Shown here in pieces: positions 373 to 30,534 of a stretch of DNA of 31,453 nt (positions within the stretch are counted from its first letter, which is position 1; each line of letters opens with the position of its first letter). Source of the DNA: a virus; the IMG/VR virus record IMGVR_UViG_3300017605_000429, positions 1 to 31,453 of that record, one strand, 5' to 3'. Both the position numbers and the translations under genes were made by a program. The notes under the pieces were generated by a model, which saw only the letters and a list, made by a program, of their open reading frames with translations, was not told the DNA's origin and did not search any database.

Positions 373-2394
373 ATGACTGAAGGGCCGCTTTATAAGTATC
401 GTTACCAGCCTGTCGCGGAGGTGATTGGTGCCCCGCGTCAGCAGGCGGCGCCTCCGAGTAGCCAGAACATCGCGCCCGCGCGGATAGCGGACTCGGACGT
501 AGGATTTGCCCCTACGACGACCCGTGTCGTCCAGCCCCCTTATGCCGCGGCGAGTCATTTCTATCGACGAAGGCGGATACCGCATTCTGAAGTTATAATG
601 ACCTTTACTATTCCAAACGCTGGAATAGTAACGCCACAGAAACTAGTAGATACCGATACGTTCTCTGCCCCTACGCTTTCGACCAGTAGCGTCATTCTGG
701 GTCAGAACTCATTTAATGATGCTGATGTATTCTTTGCACCGAAGACTACATCAACGGCGCTGCCAGCACGATTTGTTGATAGTGATACGATCTTTGTACC
801 GATTGTTGGCGGGGGCTTTACAACTACGTTATTCGTAGATGCAGACGCGTTCTTTAGTCCACTTATTGGGCCGCGCCCGAACCTGCTAGTTGATAACGAT
901 GCCCTATTTGCTCCAAGCTTTATCGGGGGCGTGAGTATTGGTCCAGCTCGGATCACTGATAATGATGTATTCTTTGCTCCTACACTTGCGACGCTTAAGC
1001 AGACAGCTCCAACGTTCTTTATCGATAGTGACGTTATATACGTTCCGGGGCTCGCCGCGACCAAGCAGCTGACTCCAACGCTATTGGTCGATACTGACGC
1101 GTTTTCTGGTGTCTCGGTCGTTTATAATCTTGGTACTTTATTCTTTGCGGATAGTGACAGTTTCCGTGCTCCGACCTTAACCGGGGGTACGGTAAGCCTG
1201 TTGCCTGGACTAATTAGTGATCAAGATACGTTCTTTACCCCTGGACTTATCAACTTTGGCGCAGACATTGAGCCAATTACTGCTTATGCAGCGGCCTCGG
1301 CGTGGATGAATATCAGGCGGTTTATACCGCCTATGTCAGTGACGGTTGTTATCGCTCGACCCATTGCAGGTGATATCAGGCCAAACGAGTTTATAGATAT
1401 AGATACTATATTCACCCCAGGTTTTGGCGGGGGCCAGTTTATGGTTCACCCCGGGATCTATGTCGAGGGTGATACGCACTACATCCCGACGGTCAGTGGG
1501 GGTATACTGAAGCGTAACTATAATGAAGTTGACAGTTCGACTATAGTCAAGAACCCGCGGTGGCTGCCCCCGCCGATGTCGATCACTGTGGTCATCCGCG
1601 GGCCAGCACAAGGAACACTGGTCACACCGAGCCTGTTCGCGGACAGTGACGTGTTCTTCACGCCCGCGCTGGGCGTCGGAGCGGCCAATATCACGCCCAC
1701 GCTGTTCATTGATCCAGACTCGCCGCGGATGGCGCTGGTCACTGGGGGTGGCGCACAGCCCACGACGGCTGGCAGGATTAACGACGCGGATAGCTTCCCG
1801 GTGCCTGGGATATCCGTAGGTGGAGTAACCATTCGACCTGCACTATTCATTGACGAAGATCTCGATGGAGTTGCGGACGGGGATCACCTGTTCGCCCCAA
1901 CGACGGGACTGTTCGTTGGCCCGACGAAGTTCACCGATACAGACACTGTATTCAGTCCTGCGATTGCGGCTATATCCGATATTAAGCCCCCGGTGTTCGT
2001 CGATAGTGATGTGTTCTTTGCTCCGGTACTGTCCATTGGGCCAGTTAATCTGACCCCGTTCAGGTTTATAGATGCTGATATCTTGATGATGCCAAGTGTC
2101 GGCTCCAAGATTGACGTAGGTTTCTTCACTGATACGAGCACTTTCTACTCGCCGACGGTTGCTCAGCGGAATGACATTACTCCAAGCCTGATCGCGGACA
2201 CTGATCGGGTATTTAGGCCACAGTTAATATACAATCAGACTATAGCCGCGTCGAGTATAATTGATGTGGACACTCTGTTTGAGCCGTTCTTCCCCAGCGA
2301 TCCGAAGTATACTTATCCTGTTGGGCATGGAATGGAGTCTGACTATTCGATCAGAAGGCCACGTCAGGGCCGAGTTATCATAGGACGACACTGA
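373..2394 (+). CDS. Large repeat protein with about 24 D-x-D-x-F-F-x-P repeats, probable virion protein
   Basis: The protein has 673 residues from the ATG at 373, one base after the previous stop; an upstream in-frame TTG at 361 is less likely. Almost the whole length is a degenerate repeat of the form [LRF]-[FIV]-[VIT]-D-x-D-x-[FI]-[FY]-x-P, spaced about 20-30 residues apart. Clear copies are RFVDSDTIFVP, LFVDADAFFSP, RITDNDVFFAP, LFADSDVFFTP and VFVDSDVFFAP. A second, longer unit occurs three times (near residues 60-85, 305-335 and 390-425 of the 673): an aromatic/Arg segment followed by PPMSxTVVI or a relative of it. There is no signal peptide, membrane segment or enzyme motif. Paired aspartates in every repeat could bind Ca2+, but this is speculation. 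It overlaps the portal start by one base, so the two are translationally coupled, which suggests a structural protein. I do not recognise a characterised family. Confidence 0.8.
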   Translation: MTEGPLYKYRYQPVAEVIGAPRQQAAPPSSQNIAPARIADSDVGFAPTTTRVVQPPYAAASHFYRRRRIPHSEVIMTFTIPNAGIVTPQKLVDTDTFSAPTLSTSSVILGQNSFNDADVFFAPKTTSTALPARFVDSDTIFVPIVGGGFTTTLFVDADAFFSPLIGPRPNLLVDNDALFAPSFIGGVSIGPARITDNDVFFAPTLATLKQTAPTFFIDSDVIYVPGLAATKQLTPTLLVDTDAFSGVSVVYNLGTLFFADSDSFRAPTLTGGTVSLLPGLISDQDTFFTPGLINFGADIEPITAYAAASAWMNIRRFIPPMSVTVVIARPIAGDIRPNEFIDIDTIFTPGFGGGQFMVHPGIYVEGDTHYIPTVSGGILKRNYNEVDSSTIVKNPRWLPPPMSITVVIRGPAQGTLVTPSLFADSDVFFTPALGVGAANITPTLFIDPDSPRMALVTGGGAQPTTAGRINDADSFPVPGISVGGVTIRPALFIDEDLDGVADGDHLFAPTTGLFVGPTKFTDTDTVFSPAIAAISDIKPPVFVDSDVFFAPVLSIGPVNLTPFRFIDADILMMPSVGSKIDVGFFTDTSTFYSPTVAQRNDITPSLIADTDRVFRPQLIYNQTIAASSIIDVDTLFEPFFPSDPKYTYPVGHGMESDYSIRRPRQGRVIIGRH

Positions 2395-4457
2395 TGGTCA
2401 GCGCATTAGCAAAGTCAGATGATGTTGTCAATGACTCAGACATTGACGAGGAGGGCTATTGGGAACTGCGCCGATGCAAGCAAGCCTATCTCGATTATAT
2501 TGCCTCGAAGAGCGACGAGATCCTTGAGCAAAAGAATGCCCGGGGCTATCGGCATGGGGCTCAGTGGTCCGCGGATCAGGTAGAGACCTTCAACCGCCGC
2601 AAGCAGCCTGTGGTGACGTACAACAGGATCGGGCGGAAGATAGACTCGATCGTGGGGCTGATGGAGAAGATCAAGCAGGACCCCAAGGCCTACCCCAAGA
2701 ACCCGCGAGAGACCGATGAGATGGGTGCCGAGCTGGCAACGGCAGTGGTAAGGTATGTGGTGGAGAGTGATCTCCGTGAGGCACTGTTTCCGTTCGCGAT
2801 AGAGTTCGGTGCTGTGGATGGCATTGGCGGCGTCGAGATGATGCTCATTAAGGGGGACAAGGACGACAAGGATATTGGGTTCGCCCTGGTCAAGACCGAC
2901 AGCTTTTTCTATGATGTCCGCTCCTATGACCACAACTTCGACGACGCGAGGTATATGGGCCAGGGCAAATGGCTCGATATCGAAGATGCTGTGCTGCTCG
3001 CCCCGGACAAGAAGACCGCTGACAAAATGCGAACGCTGATGGAGGGTGACGGCGCGGACCTGACCTCGAACCCCGAGCGCGAACGGCGCTGGTTTGACGT
3101 GGACCCTCGGCATAAGCGGATGCGAGTGGTGGACATTTGGTACAAGAGTAAGAACGCGTGGAAGTGGTGCCTGTTCACGGGCTCGATGAAGATCGACGAG
3201 GGCAAGGGCTATTTCTATGATGAGAAGGGAGAGATGATATGCAAGTATATCATGTTCTCCAGTTTCGTGGATCATGACGGTGATCGCTATGGCTTCGTCC
3301 GTAATCTACGTTCATCCCAGGATGAGATCAACCAGCGCCGCTCGAAGGGCCTACATGAGCTGGTTTCGCGAAGGATCAAGGCGGAAGATGGAGCATTTGC
3401 TGATATTGAAGTTACTCGGCGGGAGGCCATACGACCAGACGGTGTGGTTATCTACAACAAGGGCTTTGAAATGGAGTTCGATGATGCGGCTCGCATCACG
3501 AACATCGAGGGCCAAATCAAATTCCTAGAGGACGCAAAGAACGAGATCGAGAATTTCGGCCCAAGTCCGGCCCTGATTGGTCAAGGACTTGAATATAAGT
3601 CCGGGAGGGCCATAAACCTGCTGCAGCAGGCAGGAATTGCCGAACTTGGGCCGTTCGTTATAGGGATCAGGAACTGGAAACTGCGCCTTTATCGGGCTAT
3701 TTGGAACGCTGTGCAGCGATATTGGACCGCTGAACGCTATATCCGGGTCACTGACGACGCGGGACTCGCGCAGCTGGTACAGGTTAATGGGGTAGGGGTG
3801 GATGAATACGGGCTGCCGCGGCTCGTGAACTCTATTGGGACCCTTGATGTTAACTTCTCGATGGATGAGGGACCAGACGAGGTTAACATGATGGGAGATG
3901 CCTATGACACATTGGTCGCCCTCACCGCTCAAGGGGCTAATATACCTCCACAGATCCTTATTGAGCTTGCTCCGTTGCAAGGTCAGCTCAAACGTAAACT
4001 GTTGGCCTTACTCCAGCAGAAGGACCCGGTTGCTGAACAGGCTAAAGCGATCACAGTGGCTGGCGAAGCTGCGAAAGTCGATGAAACCAAGTCCAAGACC
4101 GCCCTTAACATAGCCAAGGCCCAGGAAGCTGCCGCGAGCAACAATCCTCAAGAAAAACAGCAAGAAATGGCCATGAAACAGCAAGAACATGGCATGAAGA
4201 TGCAAGAGAGTGTCATGAAGGTCCAATCGGCGAGTCAACTCGCGCGGATCAAGGCCTCGGCCGAGTTCAGCAAGCTTCAATCCAACCAGGTAAAGCAGAG
4301 TCAAGACATCCAGCTGAACGCTCTCCAGGGCCAACAGGACCTGAGACACAATGAACTGAAGGGTCAACAGGCCCTGGCCCAGGGCGAGCAGAAGCATCAG
4401 CAGATGCTCAAGCAGGCCGCGGCCAAACCAGCTGCTGGAGGTACCGGTGGCAGATGA
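2394..4457 (+). CDS. Portal protein (P22 gp1-like podovirus type)
   Basis: This 687-residue protein is the expected size for a podoviral portal, the dodecameric ring at the special vertex through which DNA is packaged and ejected. The N-terminal half has the usual portal fold signature (AVDGIGGVEMMLIKGDKD around residue 140). The helical stretch near residues 395-450 (SGRAINLLQQAGIAELGPFV then RNWKLRLYRAIWNAVQRYW) matches the crown/stem region of P22-type portals. The last 140 or so residues are very Gln/Lys/Ala-rich and alternate as a long coiled coil (KQQEMAMKQQEHGMKMQ), like the C-terminal barrel of P22 gp1. The ATG overlaps the previous TGA (TGATG). The terminase genes that normally precede the portal are not in the window and are probably to the left. 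Confidence 0.9.
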   Translation: MVSALAKSDDVVNDSDIDEEGYWELRRCKQAYLDYIASKSDEILEQKNARGYRHGAQWSADQVETFNRRKQPVVTYNRIGRKIDSIVGLMEKIKQDPKAYPKNPRETDEMGAELATAVVRYVVESDLREALFPFAIEFGAVDGIGGVEMMLIKGDKDDKDIGFALVKTDSFFYDVRSYDHNFDDARYMGQGKWLDIEDAVLLAPDKKTADKMRTLMEGDGADLTSNPERERRWFDVDPRHKRMRVVDIWYKSKNAWKWCLFTGSMKIDEGKGYFYDEKGEMICKYIMFSSFVDHDGDRYGFVRNLRSSQDEINQRRSKGLHELVSRRIKAEDGAFADIEVTRREAIRPDGVVIYNKGFEMEFDDAARITNIEGQIKFLEDAKNEIENFGPSPALIGQGLEYKSGRAINLLQQAGIAELGPFVIGIRNWKLRLYRAIWNAVQRYWTAERYIRVTDDAGLAQLVQVNGVGVDEYGLPRLVNSIGTLDVNFSMDEGPDEVNMMGDAYDTLVALTAQGANIPPQILIELAPLQGQLKRKLLALLQQKDPVAEQAKAITVAGEAAKVDETKSKTALNIAKAQEAAASNNPQEKQQEMAMKQQEHGMKMQESVMKVQSASQLARIKASAEFSKLQSNQVKQSQDIQLNALQGQQDLRHNELKGQQALAQGEQKHQQMLKQAAAKPAAGGTGGR

Positions 4458-6495: not shown

Positions 6496-7701
6496 ATGGC
6501 TATCACAGTCATTGAACCCAATAACAAACTCGTCCGGTATACAGAGGAAATCAACCGGGAGTATGTTCGGGGTAATATGTTCTCGCCCTACATGGGTGAG
6601 GGCCTGAACGCGGTCATTCGTATCCGCAGTGAGCTGAAGGCAGGCGGCGAGGATATGAATATCCCGCTCGTCACCCGTCTCCAGGGCAGTGGCGTTGCCA
6701 CTACCACCTTGGTGGGTAACGAAGAAAAGATCGATAACTACGGTATGCGAGTCCGTATTGAGTGGGCTCGTAACGCTATCGTAACTACGAAGGCGGAGAC
6801 TCACAAGGACTCCGCGGACGTGTTCGGAGTGGCGAAGCCCCTTCTGAGTGACTGGGGTAAGGAACTTCAGCGGGACGAGATCATCGTTGCACTGATGGCC
6901 CTGCCGACCGAGACCCTCCCGGTAAGCTCGAGTGGGACTCGGGTCAATGGTATCCAGTACGATCAGGCCACCGCGGCCCAGAGGGATACCTGGAACGTAG
7001 CCAATTCGGATCGCATCGTTTATGGCGCTGCGGTATCGAACTGGAATGCTGTCCATGCCACGGCCCTGGCCAACGTGGACGGCACCGCTGACAAGTTCAC
7101 CGCCGCGAACCTGTCATTGATGAAGCGCGTGGCGAAGCTCGCCGACCCCCATATCCGTCCCTATACCACTGACGATGGGTATGAGTACTACATCGTATGC
7201 GCCGGGACTAACACGTTCCGGGATCTCAAGCTTGATCTCCAGACTGTAAACAAGGACGCTCGCCCGCGTGAACAGTCAGGGCCGTACGGTGCAACGAAGA
7301 ACCCCATCTTCCAAGATGGCGATCAGATCTATGACGGCTGTATTGTTCGGGAAGTTCCCGAGATTAGCCGCTTCGTGGGAACGACCGCCAACCCTGGAGC
7401 ATGGGGCGGCGCTAGCAGCGGTAACCTGCTGGTTGCTGGAACCGTTGGTACGCCAGCGGGCTATACTGGGCGGGTCGAGCCTGTGTTCATGCTCGGTCAG
7501 CAAGCCGCAGTCTTCGCGTGGGGCCAGATGGCCAAGCCCACCTTCCGTAAGGAAGACGACTACGGTTTCATCACTGGCGTCGGCGTGGAGATGGCCTACG
7601 GCGTCGCGAAGATGTTCAAGAGGCATCCGGGTCTACCCACTGGCGGTCCACTTAAGCAGTGGGGCGTCGTGACCGGGTTCTTCGCATCTTCGTCTGATTG
7701 A
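6496..7701 (+). CDS. Major capsid protein (N4-gp56 / DUF4043-like)
   Basis: The 401-residue product has the order and composition of the N4-gp56/DUF4043 family of HK97-fold coat proteins. The N-terminal arm ends at LVRYTEEINREYVRGNMFSP; KAGGEDMNIPLVTRLQG (about residue 50) and MRVRIEWARNAIVTTKAE (about 84-100) give the usual start of the family core. A central A-domain region (ADPHIRPYTTDDGYEYYIVC near 215-235) and a C-terminal VEMAYGVAKMFKRHPG complete it. The similarity is to the coat only and does not imply an N4-like phage. The SD AAAGGG lies eight bases before ATG. It is preceded by a long dyad and, with the next gene, followed by a terminator-like hairpin, forming its own expression block. 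Confidence 0.85.
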   Translation: MAITVIEPNNKLVRYTEEINREYVRGNMFSPYMGEGLNAVIRIRSELKAGGEDMNIPLVTRLQGSGVATTTLVGNEEKIDNYGMRVRIEWARNAIVTTKAETHKDSADVFGVAKPLLSDWGKELQRDEIIVALMALPTETLPVSSSGTRVNGIQYDQATAAQRDTWNVANSDRIVYGAAVSNWNAVHATALANVDGTADKFTAANLSLMKRVAKLADPHIRPYTTDDGYEYYIVCAGTNTFRDLKLDLQTVNKDARPREQSGPYGATKNPIFQDGDQIYDGCIVREVPEISRFVGTTANPGAWGGASSGNLLVAGTVGTPAGYTGRVEPVFMLGQQAAVFAWGQMAKPTFRKEDDYGFITGVGVEMAYGVAKMFKRHPGLPTGGPLKQWGVVTGFFASSSD

Positions 7702-18821: not shown

Positions 18822-20040
18822 GTCGGGCCTCCCGCGACGCGGGCTTATAGCCTACAGCACCCTCATCCGACTGTAGCTCGAACATCCTCCCACGGACCAT
18901 CATCTCGATGACCTTCATTATGGCGTGGGCGGGCACTCGCTCGCGCAGAAAATGCACTATGCGGTGCTCTGAGATGGGCTTCTTCTCTTTCCCGTAGAGG
19001 GTCCACACGTAGTTCCAAGTCTCCTCCATCGCACTCGAGTCCCCGCCCGATATCATTGATTTGAAGATGTCTGGCATGTATGTTTCAGCTTCCATCAACC
19101 AATTAAGGGCCTGGGCATAGTCATCGACCTCAATGACCTTGTTGCCCCGCCGCGCGATGCTGGAGATCATGCACAGTTTCAGGAGGTGGGCGGTTCGTCT
19201 GGAATTGTAGTACTGGAGCTTGGAGTGTTCAGGTTCGGGTTTGCAACCATTTCTGATCCAGGCCTTGATTGCAGCTGCGGCGGGAGTGGTGAAGGACATC
19301 TGTCCGTACTCGAGTGCGATAGTTTTAAGATCATGGAGAAGATCAGCGTGCAGGCGACCTGCTGCGGGGCCAAGCCCCTCATCGAGGAAAGGATCTCGAC
19401 TGACTCGGTCACCTGAATATATGAGTAGGGTGCGGGATATAAACCCCTGATCCCAAGCTCCCGTAGGCATGACCTCGTTAAGATATGCAGGAGTACACGC
19501 TCCCAGAAGGTTAATTTGTGGAGCCTTGATTTTAATGCGGAGGTCCTTTCCTCGTCGCTTCTGGTCCACTGTGAAGCCATCGTAGATATCCGTTAGGTTG
19601 TTCATCAGCGATGTCTCCCAGCCAGGGATAAGCACCCCGAGTTCCCTGGAGACCACTGTGAGTGAGTTAAACTCGTCGAAGGGTGGGTTACCGCCCAGGA
19701 TAATGACCCTGCGAACTGACTCGTGCAGGGCATCGATCATGCTGGCCGTGGTCATGTCCGAGGGGCCGACGTGGACTTCAGGGACATCCCGCATCATGGC
19801 CTCGGCGGGATGCATAGCCACGCCCTTTCCTATCCCAGGCGGACCTACCAACAAGACATAAAGGTTAGGATAGAGCGCGGACCCCATGGTCCTCACCCAA
19901 ACTCGTCGTTCCATTGCAGCGGCAACAAAGAAGATCGCAACCCACTTGCGAAACAATGCCGGGGACGGCAGAATTTCAGTGTACTCTTCGTAGGACTCGA
20001 TCCAGTTGCCTAGCCTTCGGATGCCTGCGGGGGGTGCCAC
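18793..20040 (-). CDS. DUF3987-like ATPase, probable replicative helicase/primase-associated protein
   Basis: The GTG at 20040 overlaps the polymerase end by 31 nt; the next Met is at residue 43, too late for the fold. The 415-residue product has FFVAAAMERRVWVRTMGSAL, then YPNLYVLLVGPPGIGKGVAM with a Walker A (GPPGIGKG, about residues 65-72). A Walker B-like region follows near VIILGGNPPFDEFNSLTVVS, and a sensor-type strand is INLLGACTPAYLNEV. These features are shared with DUF3987 proteins, which often accompany phage and plasmid primases. It is the last gene of the leftward operon. No primase catalytic motif is visible here, so this may be the ATP-driven helicase or loader of the replisome, with primase elsewhere. 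Confidence 0.7.
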   Translation of the reverse strand: MAPPAGIRRLGNWIESYEEYTEILPSPALFRKWVAIFFVAAAMERRVWVRTMGSALYPNLYVLLVGPPGIGKGVAMHPAEAMMRDVPEVHVGPSDMTTASMIDALHESVRRVIILGGNPPFDEFNSLTVVSRELGVLIPGWETSLMNNLTDIYDGFTVDQKRRGKDLRIKIKAPQINLLGACTPAYLNEVMPTGAWDQGFISRTLLIYSGDRVSRDPFLDEGLGPAAGRLHADLLHDLKTIALEYGQMSFTTPAAAAIKAWIRNGCKPEPEHSKLQYYNSRRTAHLLKLCMISSIARRGNKVIEVDDYAQALNWLMEAETYMPDIFKSMISGGDSSAMEETWNYVWTLYGKEKKPISEHRIVHFLRERVPAHAIMKVIEMMVRGRMFELQSDEGAVGYKPASREARLTGRADPRE

Positions 20041-21497
20041 TTGGAAAGCCCATTCGGGTTATCAGCAGTTTTCTTACCCCAATTCCATCCGACTTGCACT
20101 TCCACAGGCACTACGAACTCGCGGCCGCCCTCGAGTTCCAGGGGAACCCGCATTGCAGAAAGTACCCTTGGGATAACCTCATTTTCGTCGCCCTCCTTGT
20201 ACTGTATAAGTATTGAGTCGTGCCCCTGCAACATTATTTGTACTATGTTCAGCCGCCACAGCGCCAGCATAGCATGGTTCATCTCGTCCGCGGTCATCGA
20301 CTGGCCCAGGTGGGCCACCGCCTGTTTCAGTGTATCACGCTCGTCGCGCTTGCCGAAGAACCAGCGCTTCCGCCCAAAGGGCGTTACCAAGTAACCCTTC
20401 TCCATTATCTCCGTTTTGACCCAGTCGTGGAGCTTGTGGATCGCTGGGAACGTAGAGAAGTAGAGTGCTTGGAAATCTTTAATGATGGACTGCTCGATCT
20501 TGGTGTGTTTCGACATCTCGAAAGGAGAGCCGAGATAGTTTGTACCATGGCCGAGCACTTTGCACATGTGCCGTAGTCCGTGATGGCGATAGTAAGGCTG
20601 CTCTGCGATAAGTCTATTCGCTTTGATATCTGCAGTCCAGGGCAGGTCGGGTCTAGACATAATTGCAACTGTAGTGTGCAGGTCTCCGGACTCACATGCG
20701 TCAAGGTATTTGGGATCTCGGAAGACATTGTAACACAGTGCCCCTATGTTGCGCGAGTCGGCCTGTTCGAGATCGATGTTGGCGAACTTCATTCCCGCGT
20801 CGGCGACGAAGATACGGCGGAGGCGTTCCTCAATGTTTTGGAGATTTCCACCACTTCCAAAGTCATTGAGGCTAGAAGAAAATCTACCTGTTGTAGTTCC
20901 TGCGATGTTATAAGAAGTACGGAGTCGCCCGTCGGAGTCAATCTTCGTCTCAAGGACTCCAATCTTTTTACCAAAATCTCGTAGTGTGAGGATATGGTTA
21001 ATAATTGGCTGAGAGATAAAATGTATCTGTAGTCGTTCAAGGGCGTCCCGGTTAACTGTGCGTACCATCTCTCCCCGTTCGTTTCGCTTTCGTACTTCAG
21101 GAAGTTTGAGTACATCATAGAGGAGAGCAGCAACATAGGAGTTAGAACGCCAAGCCTTAGTTTTTCCGCTGTCTCGGAAATCGGTGTATCCGACTCCATC
21201 GTGAACGATCCGATACAGGTTCCGCTGTAGGCGGTCAGTGTCACTTCGATACTGTTCGATAGCTCGCTTTCGTTCTGTTTCATCGACAAGGACTCCACGG
21301 AGGTTCATCTCGAGCACGGGCGCCTGCAATGCCAAGGACAGGGCATAGGTGCTGGCGGTAAGGTTATCGAGCTGCGGAAGGATGGCCTCGAGGACCTCCA
21401 ACGTCACGCAACAGTCGAGCCCATTATAGACCCACAAGCGCTCGGTCTCGGATTTGGGCTCGCCCGGGCGTAGCAGATCAGTGCGAATGGCCTTCAT
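20010..21497 (-). CDS. DNA polymerase family A, polymerase domain plus last exonuclease motif
   Basis: The 495-residue protein carries the family A motifs: motif A DLEQADSRNIGAL (242-254), motif B RHMCKVLGHGTNYLG (309-323) and motif C LQGHDSIL (423-430). The catalytic Asp residues are D242 and D427, and K313 is the motif B lysine. The position of E. coli Phe762 is His317, and HDE is HDS; variants like these occur in phage polymerases. The first 40 residues contain WVYNGLDCCVTLEVLEAI, which is the third (Y-x-x-x-D) motif of the 3'-5' exonuclease. The two earlier exonuclease motifs are in the upstream UDG-exonuclease gene, with a KTSC gene between. So a normally continuous polymerase is broken inside its proofreading domain. 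ATGA coupling links it to the KTSC gene. Confidence 0.92.
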   Translation of the reverse strand: MKAIRTDLLRPGEPKSETERLWVYNGLDCCVTLEVLEAILPQLDNLTASTYALSLALQAPVLEMNLRGVLVDETERKRAIEQYRSDTDRLQRNLYRIVHDGVGYTDFRDSGKTKAWRSNSYVAALLYDVLKLPEVRKRNERGEMVRTVNRDALERLQIHFISQPIINHILTLRDFGKKIGVLETKIDSDGRLRTSYNIAGTTTGRFSSSLNDFGSGGNLQNIEERLRRIFVADAGMKFANIDLEQADSRNIGALCYNVFRDPKYLDACESGDLHTTVAIMSRPDLPWTADIKANRLIAEQPYYRHHGLRHMCKVLGHGTNYLGSPFEMSKHTKIEQSIIKDFQALYFSTFPAIHKLHDWVKTEIMEKGYLVTPFGRKRWFFGKRDERDTLKQAVAHLGQSMTADEMNHAMLALWRLNIVQIMLQGHDSILIQYKEGDENEVIPRVLSAMRVPLELEGGREFVVPVEVQVGWNWGKKTADNPNGLSKWHPPQASEG

Positions 21498-21814
21498 CGG
21501 TCCTTGAAGTGGGCGTTAAAGAACGCTCCCTTGGAGGGCGACAGCGCGAACGCGGCGAACTCGTCAAGTGTCCCATAAAAGTCGTAGCTCAACGAGCCAC
21601 CACGTTTGAACAGCACCGTGATCGTGTCGGGTGACTTGTAACCGATCGAGGAAATGGCCGAGCTGCTCACAGGGATCGTGATCGAGTCACTGTCCTTTGG
21701 GAAGGGCACACCCAGATGCTCGGCCAGGGTGGCCATAAGCGAGGCCTCGCTGTCCTCGACCGCGGCAGTTACCGCGCCTGCCGCGATGCGGGCCAATATA
21801 CTGGGAATGGCCAT
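21494..21814 (-). CDS. KTSC-domain protein inserted between the two polymerase parts
   Basis: The 106-residue product has an N-terminal helical part (residues 1-40, LARIAAGAVTAAVEDSEASL). A C-terminal KTSC-like domain follows: VSSSAISSIGYKSPDTITVL, then FKRGGSLSYDFYGTLDEFAA, and SPSKGAFFNAHFKDR. The pattern S-x-x-I-x-x-I-G-Y ... Y-x-F-x-G-x-x-x-x-x-x-F ... S-K-G-x-F/Y-F-N fits that family, named after lysyl-tRNA synthetase C-terminal occurrences; its molecular role is not established. AAGGAGG lies six bases before ATG, so it has its own ribosome site. It lies exactly where the polymerase exonuclease domain is interrupted. It could bridge the two halves or be a later insertion. Confidence 0.8.
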   Translation of the reverse strand: MAIPSILARIAAGAVTAAVEDSEASLMATLAEHLGVPFPKDSDSITIPVSSSAISSIGYKSPDTITVLFKRGGSLSYDFYGTLDEFAAFALSPSKGAFFNAHFKDR

Positions 21815-21815
21815 A

Positions 21816-22841
21816 TCAATCCTCCTTCTTGATCGTTCCCTTATGTTTCAATCGGATACCGAGCTTCCATGCACTTTCGGATGTATAGATTGACCCGAGG
21901 TAGTCGAGTCCCTTAGGGGACTCTGGCATGAGTGCATGGTGAAGAAGCATAGTATCGTGACGAGCATTAGTAACCGGAACCCCATAAGTCCTCCAAAGAC
22001 GGTGCATGTCAAAGAGGCCATTCTGGAACACCTTCTCGCAGGGCGAAGCCAGAGCCTTCTTGACCCATTTCCACGCCGCGACCTCGGCCTGGGCGGAGCC
22101 CCAATAACGTCCACTGGAGTTGCGGTGGTCCTCAAACGGCAGAACCAATGCAACGTCTATCGTAGGGGCGAACCCGATGCAGGTTATGACGTTTCCTCTG
22201 GTTTCGATATCGACGGAGAGCCTTTTGGCGGCCAGAATGTGCTCGGTGTAGAACTTTTCAAGGTCCCCGAGGAGTGGCTCTGTGTAGATTGTCCGCTGGG
22301 GTCTCCTAATCTCGGGATACTCGGACTCGCGTCGGGCTTTTTGTAGATCGAGGATGGTGACGTGCCTTGCTTCGTACCCTCCTTGGAGGATGTAGGAGGG
22401 GTGGAAGGTTGGGATGCACTTTTTTCCTGCCAGTACGGGGGAACCTGCGACTGCCCCACGAAGTTTCGATATTCTACCGTCACGTAGTATTGCCCAGGCG
22501 GCAGTTCCCCCGAGACAGACAATGACATTCGGATCAGCTCGAGTAAGTTCTGCGTAAAGGCGGTCGAGTTCTGGGAGAAATTCATCGCGGATGTACTTGC
22601 CAGATGATAGCGGCGGGAGCGCATGACGGACCTCCTTTCGGGTGGCACATAGGTTTTCGATCTTGTTCGTCGGCCGAGGCCGCAGATTGAAGACATTCGT
22701 GAGAAAACACTCCCTTCGCGCTATCCCGGCCTCGCCCAACATCGAGTTGAGCTGCCATCCCGCCGGGCCTACGAAGGGAGCACGTTCCCGCTCCTCGTGC
22801 TCTCCCCACGCCTCCCCAACTAATGCGATTTTATAGGACAC
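21816..22841 (-). CDS. Uracil-DNA glycosylase fused to N-terminal part of a 3'-5' exonuclease
   Basis: Residues 1-175 are a family-4-like uracil-DNA glycosylase: motif GEAWGEHEERERAPFVGPAG (9-28) and the later TFHPSYIL (145-152). Residues 205-325 begin a DnaQ/Pol I exonuclease: LSVDIETRG with D211/E213 (Exo I), FQNGLFDMHRLW with D278 (Exo II), and HDTMLLHHALMPESPKGLDY. The protein then ends at residue 341 (YTSESAWKLGI..., IKKED) before the Exo III motif. That motif starts the polymerase gene two genes downstream. In known phages these domains are fused in one long UDG-Pol A protein, which helps the replisome deal with uracil. Here the halves probably reassemble, or proofreading is lost. It overlaps the HNH gene by 11 nt. 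Confidence 0.85.
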   Translation of the reverse strand: MSYKIALVGEAWGEHEERERAPFVGPAGWQLNSMLGEAGIARRECFLTNVFNLRPRPTNKIENLCATRKEVRHALPPLSSGKYIRDEFLPELDRLYAELTRADPNVIVCLGGTAAWAILRDGRISKLRGAVAGSPVLAGKKCIPTFHPSYILQGGYEARHVTILDLQKARRESEYPEIRRPQRTIYTEPLLGDLEKFYTEHILAAKRLSVDIETRGNVITCIGFAPTIDVALVLPFEDHRNSSGRYWGSAQAEVAAWKWVKKALASPCEKVFQNGLFDMHRLWRTYGVPVTNARHDTMLLHHALMPESPKGLDYLGSIYTSESAWKLGIRLKHKGTIKKED

Positions 22842-23125: not shown

Positions 23126-24415
23126 TTAACCTCCCACGGCCTCGGCCACTTTCAGCTTTCGACTTCGTCGGAGGGCCTCTCGGGCAAGACTGGCGAAATC
23201 AGGATTGATTTCAAGTCCAAGCACATGCTTTGCGCCAAGAGACTCAGCCGCTCGCAACGAACTTCCACTACCACAAGTGGGGTCAAGCATAACTGTATTC
23301 TCATCCACGAGCATTCCGAAGAAGTGTCGTAGCATAGGCTCGGGTTTTTCAGACATGTGTCTTTCTCTAACAGTTGGAGCCGCGTAAGCGTTAGCAACCG
23401 CTCTAACAATCTTTCGGTCGCCCCTCGACCCAAAGAGACAAGTTTCATAGATTTGTCGTGGTCCACGCTCGGGATCGGGGAGTATTCCTGCGCCATCAGA
23501 CTTCATCCATATTAGGGGTTGAGGGTTAATGTCCCAGCCTATGTTCTCGAGCTGGCGACAGGTCCATTCATACAGTCGCTCGTCGGCCTTTCGCATAGCA
23601 AACCAGAACATCAGGTGACACGACGGGGCCGTCATAGTCTTGGTGGTGATCTCCAAGGCCATCATCAGCTTCTGCCACGCCTCGGGCGTGTCTTCGTAGC
23701 CCCCGTGGGCGCGAGCGCCCCCTTGATTGAAGTCGTCCGCTCCTATTCCATAGGGAAAATCGCAGTGGATCAGATTGAACCGCCACGGACTGTCCCCGAG
23801 CGCCCAGTCGGTGAAGTCCGTCGTGAGGATCGACTCTGGCTCGACCTCGGGCTTGACCTCGAAGTGCTCGTGCAATCGACTGATGTTGGCTTCGTCGCGG
23901 CGCTCTCGCGCACGCTGAGCGATGCCCAAGGCCGTGGACAGCTTAGGAGCATCCGCAACCATTTTGTTGTCATCCATCTCCTCCGCAACCAGTATGAGTC
24001 TGTTGATGTGCTGCTTGGTAAAGCCTATGGCCTCGGCCGTGTCTGCCTGACTCCACGTAGGATCAGCGCGCAGCCGAAGGGCGTGCCACCGAGAGACGGC
24101 GTTGACTTGGTCCTGCCAGGAGATATCCTGACGCTTGATGTTCTCCTCAAGCTCGATCGCCTCCAACTTGAGGGGGTCAAGCTCGTCCACGTACTGCACT
24201 GGGATCGCAGTCCATCCCAATCTGGTACAGGCCGTGTACCGGCGCTCACCCGCGACAAGTTCGAAGTCCCGGGTAACGACGATAGGATGGATCAATCCCA
24301 GGCGGTTGATCGAGTCCGCCAGTACGTCGATGTCGCTCAGTTCGCGCCGCTGCCGTTCGTCCCGCTTGACATGGATGTCGCCAAGCGGGACCAAGTGAAA
24401 TTGCCCTGAAGTCAT
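23126..24415 (-). CDS. ParB-like nuclease/partition domain fused to DNA methyltransferase
   Basis: Residues 1-180 are a ParB N-terminal domain: LADSINRLGLIHPIVVTRDF, then LVAGERRYTACTRLG (the GERR motif) and an HTH region around SQADTAEAIGFTKQHINRLI. Residues 200-420 are an amino-methyltransferase: catalytic motif IV as DFPYG (219-223, in place of DPPY) and the SAM-binding motif DPTCGSGSSLRAAESLGAKH (378-397). Fusions of this kind are frequent in phages and likely combine site recognition by the ParB part with adenine or N4-cytosine methylation, for escape from restriction or control of DNA. Phe in DFPY is an accepted variant of the pocket. SD AGGAGG is seven bases away. It lies between an accessory gene and HNH. 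Confidence 0.9.
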   Translation of the reverse strand: MTSGQFHLVPLGDIHVKRDERQRRELSDIDVLADSINRLGLIHPIVVTRDFELVAGERRYTACTRLGWTAIPVQYVDELDPLKLEAIELEENIKRQDISWQDQVNAVSRWHALRLRADPTWSQADTAEAIGFTKQHINRLILVAEEMDDNKMVADAPKLSTALGIAQRARERRDEANISRLHEHFEVKPEVEPESILTTDFTDWALGDSPWRFNLIHCDFPYGIGADDFNQGGARAHGGYEDTPEAWQKLMMALEITTKTMTAPSCHLMFWFAMRKADERLYEWTCRQLENIGWDINPQPLIWMKSDGAGILPDPERGPRQIYETCLFGSRGDRKIVRAVANAYAAPTVRERHMSEKPEPMLRHFFGMLVDENTVMLDPTCGSGSSLRAAESLGAKHVLGLEINPDFASLAREALRRSRKLKVAEAVGG

Positions 24416-29015: not shown

Positions 29016-29735
29016 CTAGACTGCGGCCGTATTCTTACGCCTCCGGCTGAGGAGGCCTAGACCAACGAGCCCGGCCGCGAACAGCGGCAGTGCTGCTGGA
29101 AGCGGAACCTGTGCCACCGGCACAATGTAGAACGACTCGCCGCCGTCCACTGCACCAGACCACGTGGCCTGGAACAACAGACGGTCGCCAAGGTGGGCGA
29201 GGCCGCTCAGATTGAAGCCTGAGATCAGGTAGTCAGCCGAGCCATTGCCGTTTCTGATATCGGGCAGTGGGACCGGATTGAGAAGGCTGAACAGAACCAG
29301 TGAACCGAGGGGGCCATCTCCAGACTGATCAAGGTCGATCAGACGGAACTGCGTTAGAACCTCCGACTTTGCGCTGGTCGAGTTCACGTCCACGGCCACG
29401 CCGAAGGTAAGGCCAGCGTCTCCCAACGCTGTCAGGAAGTTTACGAGCTGGGTACCAGTGTAGGGTGTAACAGTGGTGTCGTCACCATTACCGAAGGCTC
29501 CGGTAATGTTAGAGCTGAACAGGTTAAACGAACTGTTGTTACCTGTGCTGTTGAAGTTGTTGTAACCGAAGCCCACGGGGTTATGGGCCTGGGTTGTGGC
29601 GCAGATAATGCAGGGCGCAGATGCCGACTGCGGCACCACGTCAGCGTCAGGTAGTACGCTAACAGTGAGTGGGGCTGCGTTAGCCGTCATCGACGCCAGA
29701 CACAATGCTGTAGCCAGGAGCAGGGACTTACGCAT
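29016..29735 (-). CDS. Exported protein with VPLPA-CTERM exosortase sorting signal
   Basis: The 239-residue product has a signal peptide (MRKSLLLATALCLASMTANA, cut expected after ANA) and a C-terminal sorting tail: VPLPAALPLFAAGLVGLGLL then SRRRKNTAAV. That is the tripartite motif, hydrophobic helix and Arg cluster of PEP/VPLPA-CTERM proteins, which are handled by exosortase/archaeosortase enzymes in the inner membrane. The mature domain (about 20-205) is Asn/Ser/Gly/Asp-rich with beta segments and a C-x2-C (PCIICATT). No exosortase is visible, so the host must supply it. It has GAGAGGAAC before ATG and sits alone between longer gaps, like a moron. Its work on the host surface (e.g. blocking further adsorption) is a guess. 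Confidence 0.85.
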   Translation of the reverse strand: MRKSLLLATALCLASMTANAAPLTVSVLPDADVVPQSASAPCIICATTQAHNPVGFGYNNFNSTGNNSSFNLFSSNITGAFGNGDDTTVTPYTGTQLVNFLTALGDAGLTFGVAVDVNSTSAKSEVLTQFRLIDLDQSGDGPLGSLVLFSLLNPVPLPDIRNGNGSADYLISGFNLSGLAHLGDRLLFQATWSGAVDGGESFYIVPVAQVPLPAALPLFAAGLVGLGLLSRRRKNTAAV

Positions 29736-29766
29736 CAGTGTTCCTCTCTTGCTGCGGAAGTGCAGC

Positions 29767-29790
29767 GCGAAAGGCCGAGAGGCCCTTTGC
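29767..29790 (-). terminator. Hairpin upstream of the VPLPA-CTERM gene, weak terminator candidate
   Basis: On the minus strand GCAAAGGGCC and GGCCTTTCGC form a ten-position stem with one mismatch and one G-U around a TCTC loop. The TTT lies in the stem, with no longer T-run behind it. It sits in the 201-nt gap between the previous stop and this gene, 32 nt before the ATG, so it could limit read-through or act in the leader. Confidence 0.35.
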
Positions 29791-29901
29791 GGTGCACTCC
29801 ACTAGAGAAGTTGACCCAGCACGGTGATGCGGCAACATTCCGCGCTGGGCCGACAGCCGCCATCCTCGGAGGGTGTTTGCAACCCGGAGAGCAGCTGTAG
29901 A

Positions 29902-29928
29902 GGGGAGGGCACGGTGGGCACCCTCCCC
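29902..29928 (-). other. GC-rich hairpin just after the early gene stop
   Basis: GGGGAGGG (plus strand 29902-29909) and CCCTCCCC (29921-29928) form an eight-pair stem with an 11-base loop, eight nt after the stop of the gene at 29937. No T-run follows in minus direction. It may stabilise the 3' end or weaken transcription into the VPLPA-CTERM gene. Confidence 0.4.
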
Positions 29929-29936
29929 CTTTGACG

Positions 29937-30467
29937 TTATTGGGCCTGCGCAGAGTCGAGCAGTTCGTGGACCGAGGCCATAGCCTCCTTGGCCGTCGCG
30001 CGCTCGGTCTCGATCTGCTGGCGGGCAATCGAGATGATCTTGCCGTTCTCGCCCTGCATCTCGAGGAGGGCCTTCGCGGCCTGGGAAATCCTCGACGCGG
30101 GCCAAGCGTCAGCGTCCATGCCCTTCGCCTTGACCGCGTTGCGAACCAGCTCGCGAGCCATGTTCATTGCAGTGGTCATGACCGGGTCGCCCCTGAAGCC
30201 GCCGCCGCCAGTGCGAACGCCGAACTGGTAGTCATTGGCATAGTCATCGAGCTGCTGTTGCAGGGTCTCGTGGGGGACTCCGGCCTCCGCGCCGTCCCGA
30301 ACCTTCGAGGCGAAATTATTGCGGAGGTTCTCGTGAAAGGTCTGGTTCAGGGCCGATGCCTCACCGTCGTTGAGTGAGTGTCCAGCCGCGTACCGAATAG
30401 GGACTCGAAAGGCCTGTCCCTGGATAGTGATTTGATCGTAGTTGCCGCTACCATTACCGTCTGCCAT
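29937..30467 (-). CDS. Conserved-type early phage protein of unknown function (176 aa)
   Basis: The start is the ATG at 30467 with GAGGAGG seven bases upstream; a longer frame to 30512 would run through the leader. The product MADGNGSGNYDQITIQGQAF has a recognisable block LNQTFHENLRNNFASKVRDG (about residues 40-60) and DDYANDYQFGVRTGGGGFRG (about 75-95), seen in many podophage early proteins without known function. A helical C-terminal half (AKALLEMQGENGKIISIARQ) follows. It stands first behind the predicted sigma70-type promoter, so strong early expression is expected. Small size, acidic helices and position would fit an ssDNA-related or host-takeover role, which is speculation. Confidence 0.75.
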   Translation of the reverse strand: MADGNGSGNYDQITIQGQAFRVPIRYAAGHSLNDGEASALNQTFHENLRNNFASKVRDGAEAGVPHETLQQQLDDYANDYQFGVRTGGGGFRGDPVMTTAMNMARELVRNAVKAKGMDADAWPASRISQAAKALLEMQGENGKIISIARQQIETERATAKEAMASVHELLDSAQAQ

Positions 30468-30485
30468 AGTAACCTCCTCGTTGAA

Positions 30486-30499
30486 GGGGCATTTGCCCC
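30486..30499 (-). other. 5'-leader hairpin
   Basis: On the minus strand GGGGCA, AA, TGCCCC gives a perfect six-pair stem 10 nt before the SD of the gene starting at 30467. It lies in the predicted leader of the early transcript and could protect the RNA 5' end or set ribosome access. Confidence 0.5.
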
Positions 30500-30510
30500 G
30501 GTTAAAAGTC

Positions 30511-30534
30511 ACCCATACGTGACTCGATATGGTT
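30511..30534 (-). promoter_or_regulatory. Operator-like dyad overlapping the predicted transcription start
   Basis: ACCCATA (30511-30517) and TATGGTT (30528-30534) form an inverted repeat with six of seven positions matching. Half sites CCATA/TATGG are the outer half sites of the capsid dyad at 6439. It covers the position where the promoter at 30536-30564 would start RNA, a normal place for a repressor site. Confidence 0.45.

What the first reader, a model, noticed from the sequence alone, without database searches (positions are those of the whole stretch)
29016..29735. A phage-encoded exosortase substrate (VPLPA-CTERM protein)
Seen: signal peptide, VPLPA motif, hydrophobic helix and Arg cluster in one 239-aa protein, sitting among phage early genes. 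Exosortase substrates are usually chromosomal and linked to exopolysaccharide or biofilm surfaces. A phage copy would be placed on the host surface by the host's enzyme, suggesting superinfection exclusion, surface remodelling or an aid to lysogeny, and it limits the host range to exosortase bearers.
Basis: partly seen in the sequence, partly recalled or inferred. Interest (0 to 1): 0.85.

Follow-up and report, generated by a model that had tools for sequence, protein, structure and literature searches.

The report
Phage gene tagged for host-surface display
Many unrelated uncultured phages carry a gene for a secreted protein whose tail looks like the address label that bacteria use to send proteins to their slimy outer surface, and the phages swap that tail and the protein it carries independently, which suggests that they coat their hosts with proteins of their own, perhaps to shut out rival phages.

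Summary
Observation confirmed; context much larger than stated. The ORF 29735-29016 lies on the MINUS strand. It encodes a signal peptide, a 186-residue domain predicted as a beta-sandwich, VPLPA, a hydrophobic helix and RRRK. The record is a phage; a near-complete 46.8 kb relative has the same gene in the same place.

43 IMG/VR contigs encode the same domain. Most share few or no other genes with the window, so the gene is moving cargo. Pattern scans found none in 84,980 GTDB species; translated searches found none in GenBank phages or PLSDB plasmids. No exosortase lies in the 36 records tested.

The domain is under purifying selection. The tail changes type 8-9 times on the domain tree: VPLPA-like, genuine PEP-CTERM, and a GAG[IL]PG type unrecognised by Pfam and NCBIfam. 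Tails and domains recombine separately; several such proteins in one phage carry matching tails (10 of 10 contigs). In integrase-bearing relatives the gene lies within 2 kb of the integrase in 8 of 10.

Best reading: phage surface-display cargo that uses the host's exosortase, most likely for superinfection exclusion. Sorting and function are inferred. The window's own phage seems virulent, so lysogeny is not its reason here.

The parts
29016..29735 (-). phage exosortase-substrate-like gene, 239 aa (family A)
   Evidence: 43 IMG/VR contigs encode relatives
29741..29749 (-). Shine-Dalgarno-like AGAGAGGAA, 5 nt before ATG
   Evidence: sequence read directly; invariant in the window and 4 relatives
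29676..29735 (-). signal peptide, residues 1-20, Ala-x-Ala end
   Evidence: sequence; helix 3-14 in the model; A20 invariant in the 32-row alignment
29118..29675 (-). conserved ectodomain, residues 21-206, predicted beta-sandwich; ends in DGGESFYIVP
   Evidence: body dN/dS mostly 0.03-0.2
29601..29612 (-). invariant CxxC (C42-I-I-C45), the only two invariant cysteines
29094..29108 (-). VPLPA motif, residues 210-214 (P213 invariant, P211 over 90% in all tail types)
29049..29093 (-). hydrophobic C-terminal helix, residues 215-229
   Evidence: helix 215-233 in the model
29034..29045 (-). basic cluster RRRK, residues 231-234
29756..29800 (-). strong hairpin in the 5' leader, -28.3 kcal/mol, z -5.7
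2394..4457 (+). context: P22-like portal
   Evidence: PF16510 E 1e-79
6496..7701 (+). context: major capsid protein
   Evidence: PF13252 E 1e-33
20010..21497 (-). context: DNA polymerase A
   Evidence: PF00476 E 4e-31
29937..30512 (-). context: upstream neighbour, unknown, same strand
   Evidence: 97-99% identical in the near-relatives L002-L005

Best explanation
The gene is a mobile phage cargo gene that makes a protein for display on the host's surface by the host's own exosortase. Shown in sequence: signal peptide, conserved secreted domain, and a C-terminal tag (P-x-P motif, hydrophobic helix, arginines) of the exosortase-substrate plan; the domain and the tag are exchanged independently, so the tag is a replaceable address. 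Inferred steps: the protein is exported by Sec, parked in the inner membrane by the tail, cleaved by the host exosortase and passed to the outer surface or exopolysaccharide layer; there the domain changes what can bind to the infected cell. Most likely benefit: superinfection exclusion (masking or altering a receptor in the surface polysaccharide), useful to virulent phages such as this one during infection and to temperate relatives as prophages. The phage brings the substrate, not the enzyme, and matches the tag to the host.
For: Architecture. Relatives with the same domain carry tails over the curated PEP-CTERM cut-offs (L022, L035). Tail type changes 8-9 times on the domain tree. L002 versus L004: body 97.8% DNA identity, tail 69%, Fisher 1.7e-17; conversely L010 versus L023: body 69%, tail 96%. 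At one locus (L136, L137, L139, L140), similar signal peptide (74-95% in the pairs compared) and tail (78-87%) flank unrelated bodies: 61-63% DNA identity for the pairs with L136, equal to shuffled; L146 has a further body there. Ten of 10 contigs with two or three substrates have matching tail types. Family carried by about 20 phage backbones with few or no other shared genes. In integrase-bearing records the gene is within 2 kb of the integrase in 8 of 10; 1.0 expected, never reached in 200,000 random placements. No exosortase in the 36 phage records. Tail look-alikes on Rhizobium and Roseobacter plasmids sit among exopolysaccharide sugar genes. Haft et al. 2006 describe the same anatomy and call PEP-CTERM modular, with stronger similarity within than between species (PMC1569441).
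Against: No experiment; host unknown, so the presence of a cognate exosortase is not shown. The window's own tail misses the TIGR03370 cut-off and is borderline for PF07589. No fold match with significance, so the action of the domain is unknown. Strong conservation of the domain is not what a rapid arms race at the surface would leave. No test separates superinfection exclusion from other surface roles.
Confidence: 0.5

Rival explanations
1. Same surface display, but the benefit is lysogenic conversion: the protein helps the host in biofilm, flocculation or plant-surface life, and so the prophage.
For: Gene within 2 kb of the integrase in 8 of 10 integrase-bearing records, the usual place of conversion genes; host PEP-CTERM proteins act with exopolysaccharide in floc formation (work cited in PMC12642866).
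Against: The window's own lineage shows no integrase or resolvase in a near-complete 46.8 kb relative; several other carriers lack integrases; no prophage carrier in the GTDB set.
Confidence: 0.25
2. Decoy substrate: the phage floods the host exosortase with a competing tail, blocking display of host surface proteins, for example receptors or matrix proteins that trap virions.
For: The tail seems matched to the host while the body is replaceable.
Against: If only the tail mattered, the body would not be under strong purifying selection, nor would two different bodies be carried in tandem.
Confidence: 0.08
3. Inner-membrane-anchored periplasmic protein without any exosortase step, for example a genome-entry blocker; the tail is just a membrane anchor.
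For: Signal peptide plus C-terminal helix and arginines is enough for a type I membrane anchor; the window's own tail scores are borderline.
Against: The P-x-P motif is conserved across tail types (P213 invariant); relatives have true PEP-CTERM tails over cut-off; tail types match within a phage.
Confidence: 0.12
4. Virion or lysis component placed near lysins by chance of module.
For: In several relatives the gene is near amidase, lysozyme or GH25 genes.
Against: Signal peptide and sorting tail are odd for a virion protein; positions vary between replication, integrase and lysis neighbourhoods; absent from PHROGs.
Confidence: 0.05

Closest known systems
PEP-CTERM / exosortase (EpsH, Xrt) substrates (TIGR02595, PF07589; Haft et al. 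2006, PMC1569441)
   Same: Signal peptide, P-x-P motif, about 15-residue hydrophobic helix, basic cluster at the extreme C terminus; bodies diverse; small single genes
   Different: Carried by phages, not by chromosomes; enzyme not in the same genome; tails swapped between types on one conserved body; the 2006 paper does not mention phage
VPLPA-CTERM (TIGR03370)
   Same: The window's tail has VPLPA at the expected place, 21.5 bits
   Different: Under the curated cut-off of 25.35; other family members use PEP or GAG[IL]PG tails
Phage morons / lysogenic-conversion and superinfection-exclusion surface proteins (from memory: lipoproteins such as T5 Llp, Cor, seroconverting glucosyltransferases)
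   Same: Small, self-contained cargo gene in varied positions, often by the integrase, acting at the host envelope (inferred)
   Different: Uses an exosortase-type sorting tag rather than a lipobox or membrane span; works only in hosts with the matching sorting enzyme (inferred)
Hot-spring viral contigs with TIGR03118 exosortase-tailed proteins (Commun Biol 2024, PMC11003980)
   Different: Different body family; reported as transferred cellular proteins in passing, no tail analysis in the passage read

Membership tests
PEP-CTERM/exosortase substrate class (broad) | N-terminal signal peptide | tested here: met
   residues 1-20; invariant A20
PEP-CTERM/exosortase substrate class (broad) | Pro-x-Pro motif, hydrophobic helix and basic cluster at the C-terminal end | tested here: met
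PEP-CTERM/exosortase substrate class (broad) | score over a curated model's cut-off | tested here: inconclusive
   window: PF07589 18.4 or 22.7 against 20.7; relatives L022 and L035 clearly over PF07589 and TIGR02595; GAG[IL]PG tails match no model
PEP-CTERM/exosortase substrate class (broad) | cognate exosortase in the same cell | not testable with these tools
   host unknown; none in 36 phage records
PEP-CTERM/exosortase substrate class (broad) | cleavage and surface delivery | not testable with these tools
   needs experiment
VPLPA-CTERM (TIGR03370) | score over 25.35 bits | tested here: not met
   21.5 bits; it resembles this class but is not filed as a member
Phage moron / conversion gene | gene present in otherwise unrelated phages at different positions | tested here: met
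Phage moron / conversion gene | own promoter and terminator | tested here: inconclusive
   no sigma-70 promoter found; strong leader hairpin
Phage moron / conversion gene | carrier is temperate | tested here: inconclusive
   integrase in 10 of the 28 family-A records tested, within 2 kb of the gene in 8 of the 10; none in the window's near-complete relative
Superinfection-exclusion protein | expression blocks adsorption or entry of other phages | not testable with these tools
   needs experiment

The most novel reading that the evidence does not exclude
Soil phages run an interchangeable surface-display system: a host-matched signal peptide and exosortase tag act as a fixed mount, into which different ectodomain cassettes are exchanged between phages, often two per genome, to control which phages can attach to the infected cell. 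The GAG[IL]PG tail would be an exosortase recognition class absent from the model libraries searched here.
Probability: 0.4. Interest if true: 0.9.

Novelty: new variant of a known kind. Interest (0 to 1): 0.8.

Why it matters
Exosortase biology is poorly understood: substrates have few known roles and the natural partner rules of tail types are largely predicted. Phages that switch tails on one body offer natural experiments on which tail goes with which exosortase. If the display is real, a host sorting enzyme becomes a dependency factor of phage infection, and a large set of phage genes now called hypothetical (181 IMG/VR contigs with the GAG[IL]PG tail alone; the best 80 were examined) gets a location and a testable role in phage competition in soil.

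Tried and rejected
Host chromosome fragment: rejected (phage hallmark genes, near-complete syntenic relative, complete relatives with terminal repeats). Chance motif: rejected (conserved family, reversed-sequence control 2 hits against 86). A cellular homologue in GTDB: the one hit (L034) is a chance DGGESFY in a non-homologous, LigD-like ORF. Exosortase carried by the phage: none. Domain identity by fold: no match with E <= 0.001 in PDB or BFVD; weak jelly-roll/carbohydrate-module resemblances were not used. PDB by sequence: none. Relatives in isolated phages and plasmids: none. Host by tail similarity: only weak hits in Rhizobium and Roseobacter; the integrase of L042 is 36% identical to a Bradyrhizobium one, a hint of Alphaproteobacteria, no more. 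Sigma-54 site upstream, as in many proteobacterial PEP-CTERM genes: none above chance. Searching alphaproteobacterial genomes directly was not possible.

Full report
What is there. The ORF lies on the minus strand, 29735 to 29016. It has a Shine-Dalgarno-like site, a 20-residue signal peptide, a 186-residue domain, VPLPA, a hydrophobic helix and RRRK. Curated models place the tail at the border: PF07589 22.7 bits in the six-frame scan (over 20.7) and 18.4 in the protein scan; TIGR03370 21.5 against 25.35. AlphaFold gives a beta-sandwich at 21-206 and a C-terminal helix 215-233, mean pLDDT 75; no fold match with E <= 0.001.

It is phage DNA. The record holds a P22-like portal, capsid, head-closure protein, DNA polymerase A, primase/helicase, RecB-like nuclease and part of a UvrD helicase. 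Record G001 (46.8 kb) carries nearly all of the window proteins tested, in the same order, mostly 80-100% identical with some more diverged, plus a terminase. Its two ends fall in neighbouring genes of the window's map, so it is close to a full genome. The exosortase-type gene sits at the same place.

It is a phage family, not a stray gene. Searches with the protein and then with an alignment found 43 IMG/VR contigs (44 loci). Only L002-L005 and L020 share the window's backbone; the rest share few or no other genes with it, yet the protein is up to 88% identical. One copy per record is the rule. The GTDB scan gave no true relative in 84,980 species (the one hit is chance). Translated searches of GenBank phages and PLSDB plasmids gave none. 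The GTDB scan relies on short exact patterns, so distant cellular relatives could be missed.

The tag is a separate module. Body dN/dS is mostly 0.03-0.2, up to about 0.35 for the most distant pairs. On the body tree the tail type changes 8-9 times (the row L030 was left untyped by the script but has a GAGVPG tail). L022 and L035 carry true PEP-CTERM tails over PF07589 and TIGR02595 cut-offs. L002 and L004 differ by 2.2% of bases in the body but 31% in the tail and 18% beyond it. L010 and L023 differ by 31% in the body but 4% in the tail. At the locus behind another exosortase-type gene (L136, L137, L139, L140), signal peptide and tail stay similar while the body is family A or an unrelated domain; identity between such unrelated bodies equals that of shuffled sequence. 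Ten of 10 contigs with two or three substrates have matching tails. The five PEP cases are related loci, so these are not ten independent events. This is what is expected if the tail must fit the host.

A wider class. A search for the tail P[IV][VA]GAG[IL]PG found 181 IMG/VR contigs with confirmed matches. All of the best 80 loci carry the motif 28-38 residues before a stop, and nearly all have a recognisable signal peptide. Many of the bodies are distant relatives of family A; others are different families. The GAG[IL]PG-tailed proteins tested match no tail model in Pfam or NCBIfam. Two further body families were traced.

Where it sits. In 10 family-A records with a tyrosine integrase the gene is within 2 kb in 8; 1.0 expected by random placement, none of 200,000 trials reached 8; some of these phages share genes, so the number overstates independence. 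Others have it near amidase, lysozyme or GH25 genes. The window's own lineage has neither tyrosine nor serine recombinase in G001 and looks virulent (inference).

How it most likely works. Shown: a secreted, tail-tagged phage protein with an exchangeable tag. Inferred: the tag fits the host; host exosortase cleaves it and delivers the protein to the surface or exopolysaccharide; the ectodomain then changes the surface. Since virulent and temperate phages both carry it, a benefit during infection, superinfection exclusion, is favoured over benefit to lysogens alone. No exosortase lies in the 36 phage records, so the host must supply it. Host-like tails on Rhizobium and Roseobacter plasmids stand among exopolysaccharide sugar genes.

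Known or new. PEP-CTERM proteins are known (PMC1569441, where phage is not mentioned); one paper notes exosortase-tailed proteins among viral contigs in passing (PMC11003980); text searches for PEP-CTERM or exosortase with phage, prophage, viral contigs or auxiliary metabolic genes showed no study of phage-borne substrates in the titles and abstracts listed. The library holds open-licence papers only. A new variant of known kinds: phage cargo gene plus exosortase tag.

Noticed in passing
29756-29800 and 29894-29935 (minus strand): Two strong hairpins in the 200-nt gap before the gene (-28.3 kcal/mol, z -5.7; -23.4, z -3.1), kept in four relatives; possible terminator of the upstream operon or leader control.
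   Followed up: partly
23126-24415: ParB N-terminal domain fused to an N6/N4 DNA methyltransferase in one protein.
   Followed up: no
20010-22841: DNA polymerase A domain in one gene, and a uracil-DNA-glycosylase-like domain joined to a 3'-5' exonuclease-like domain in a nearby gene: a split polymerase with a UDG fusion.
   Followed up: no
361-2394: 677-aa protein made of many short repeats of the form D-x-D-x-FF-x-P, upstream of the portal; function unknown.
   Followed up: no
L025:8376-8816: Open frame of repeated ARS-x-x-(V/M)VLS units about 1.2 kb from the exosortase-type gene pair; may be a repeat array rather than a gene.
   Followed up: no
L151:3288-6666: Three exosortase-type genes on one phage contig, two of them neighbours, all with GAGLPG-like tails.
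   Followed up: partly
L008, L009, L010 downstream of the gene: Shared neighbour beginning MASHNVYTFFSVHNCLDEDFD on the opposite strand; conserved partner or just shared backbone.
   Followed up: no
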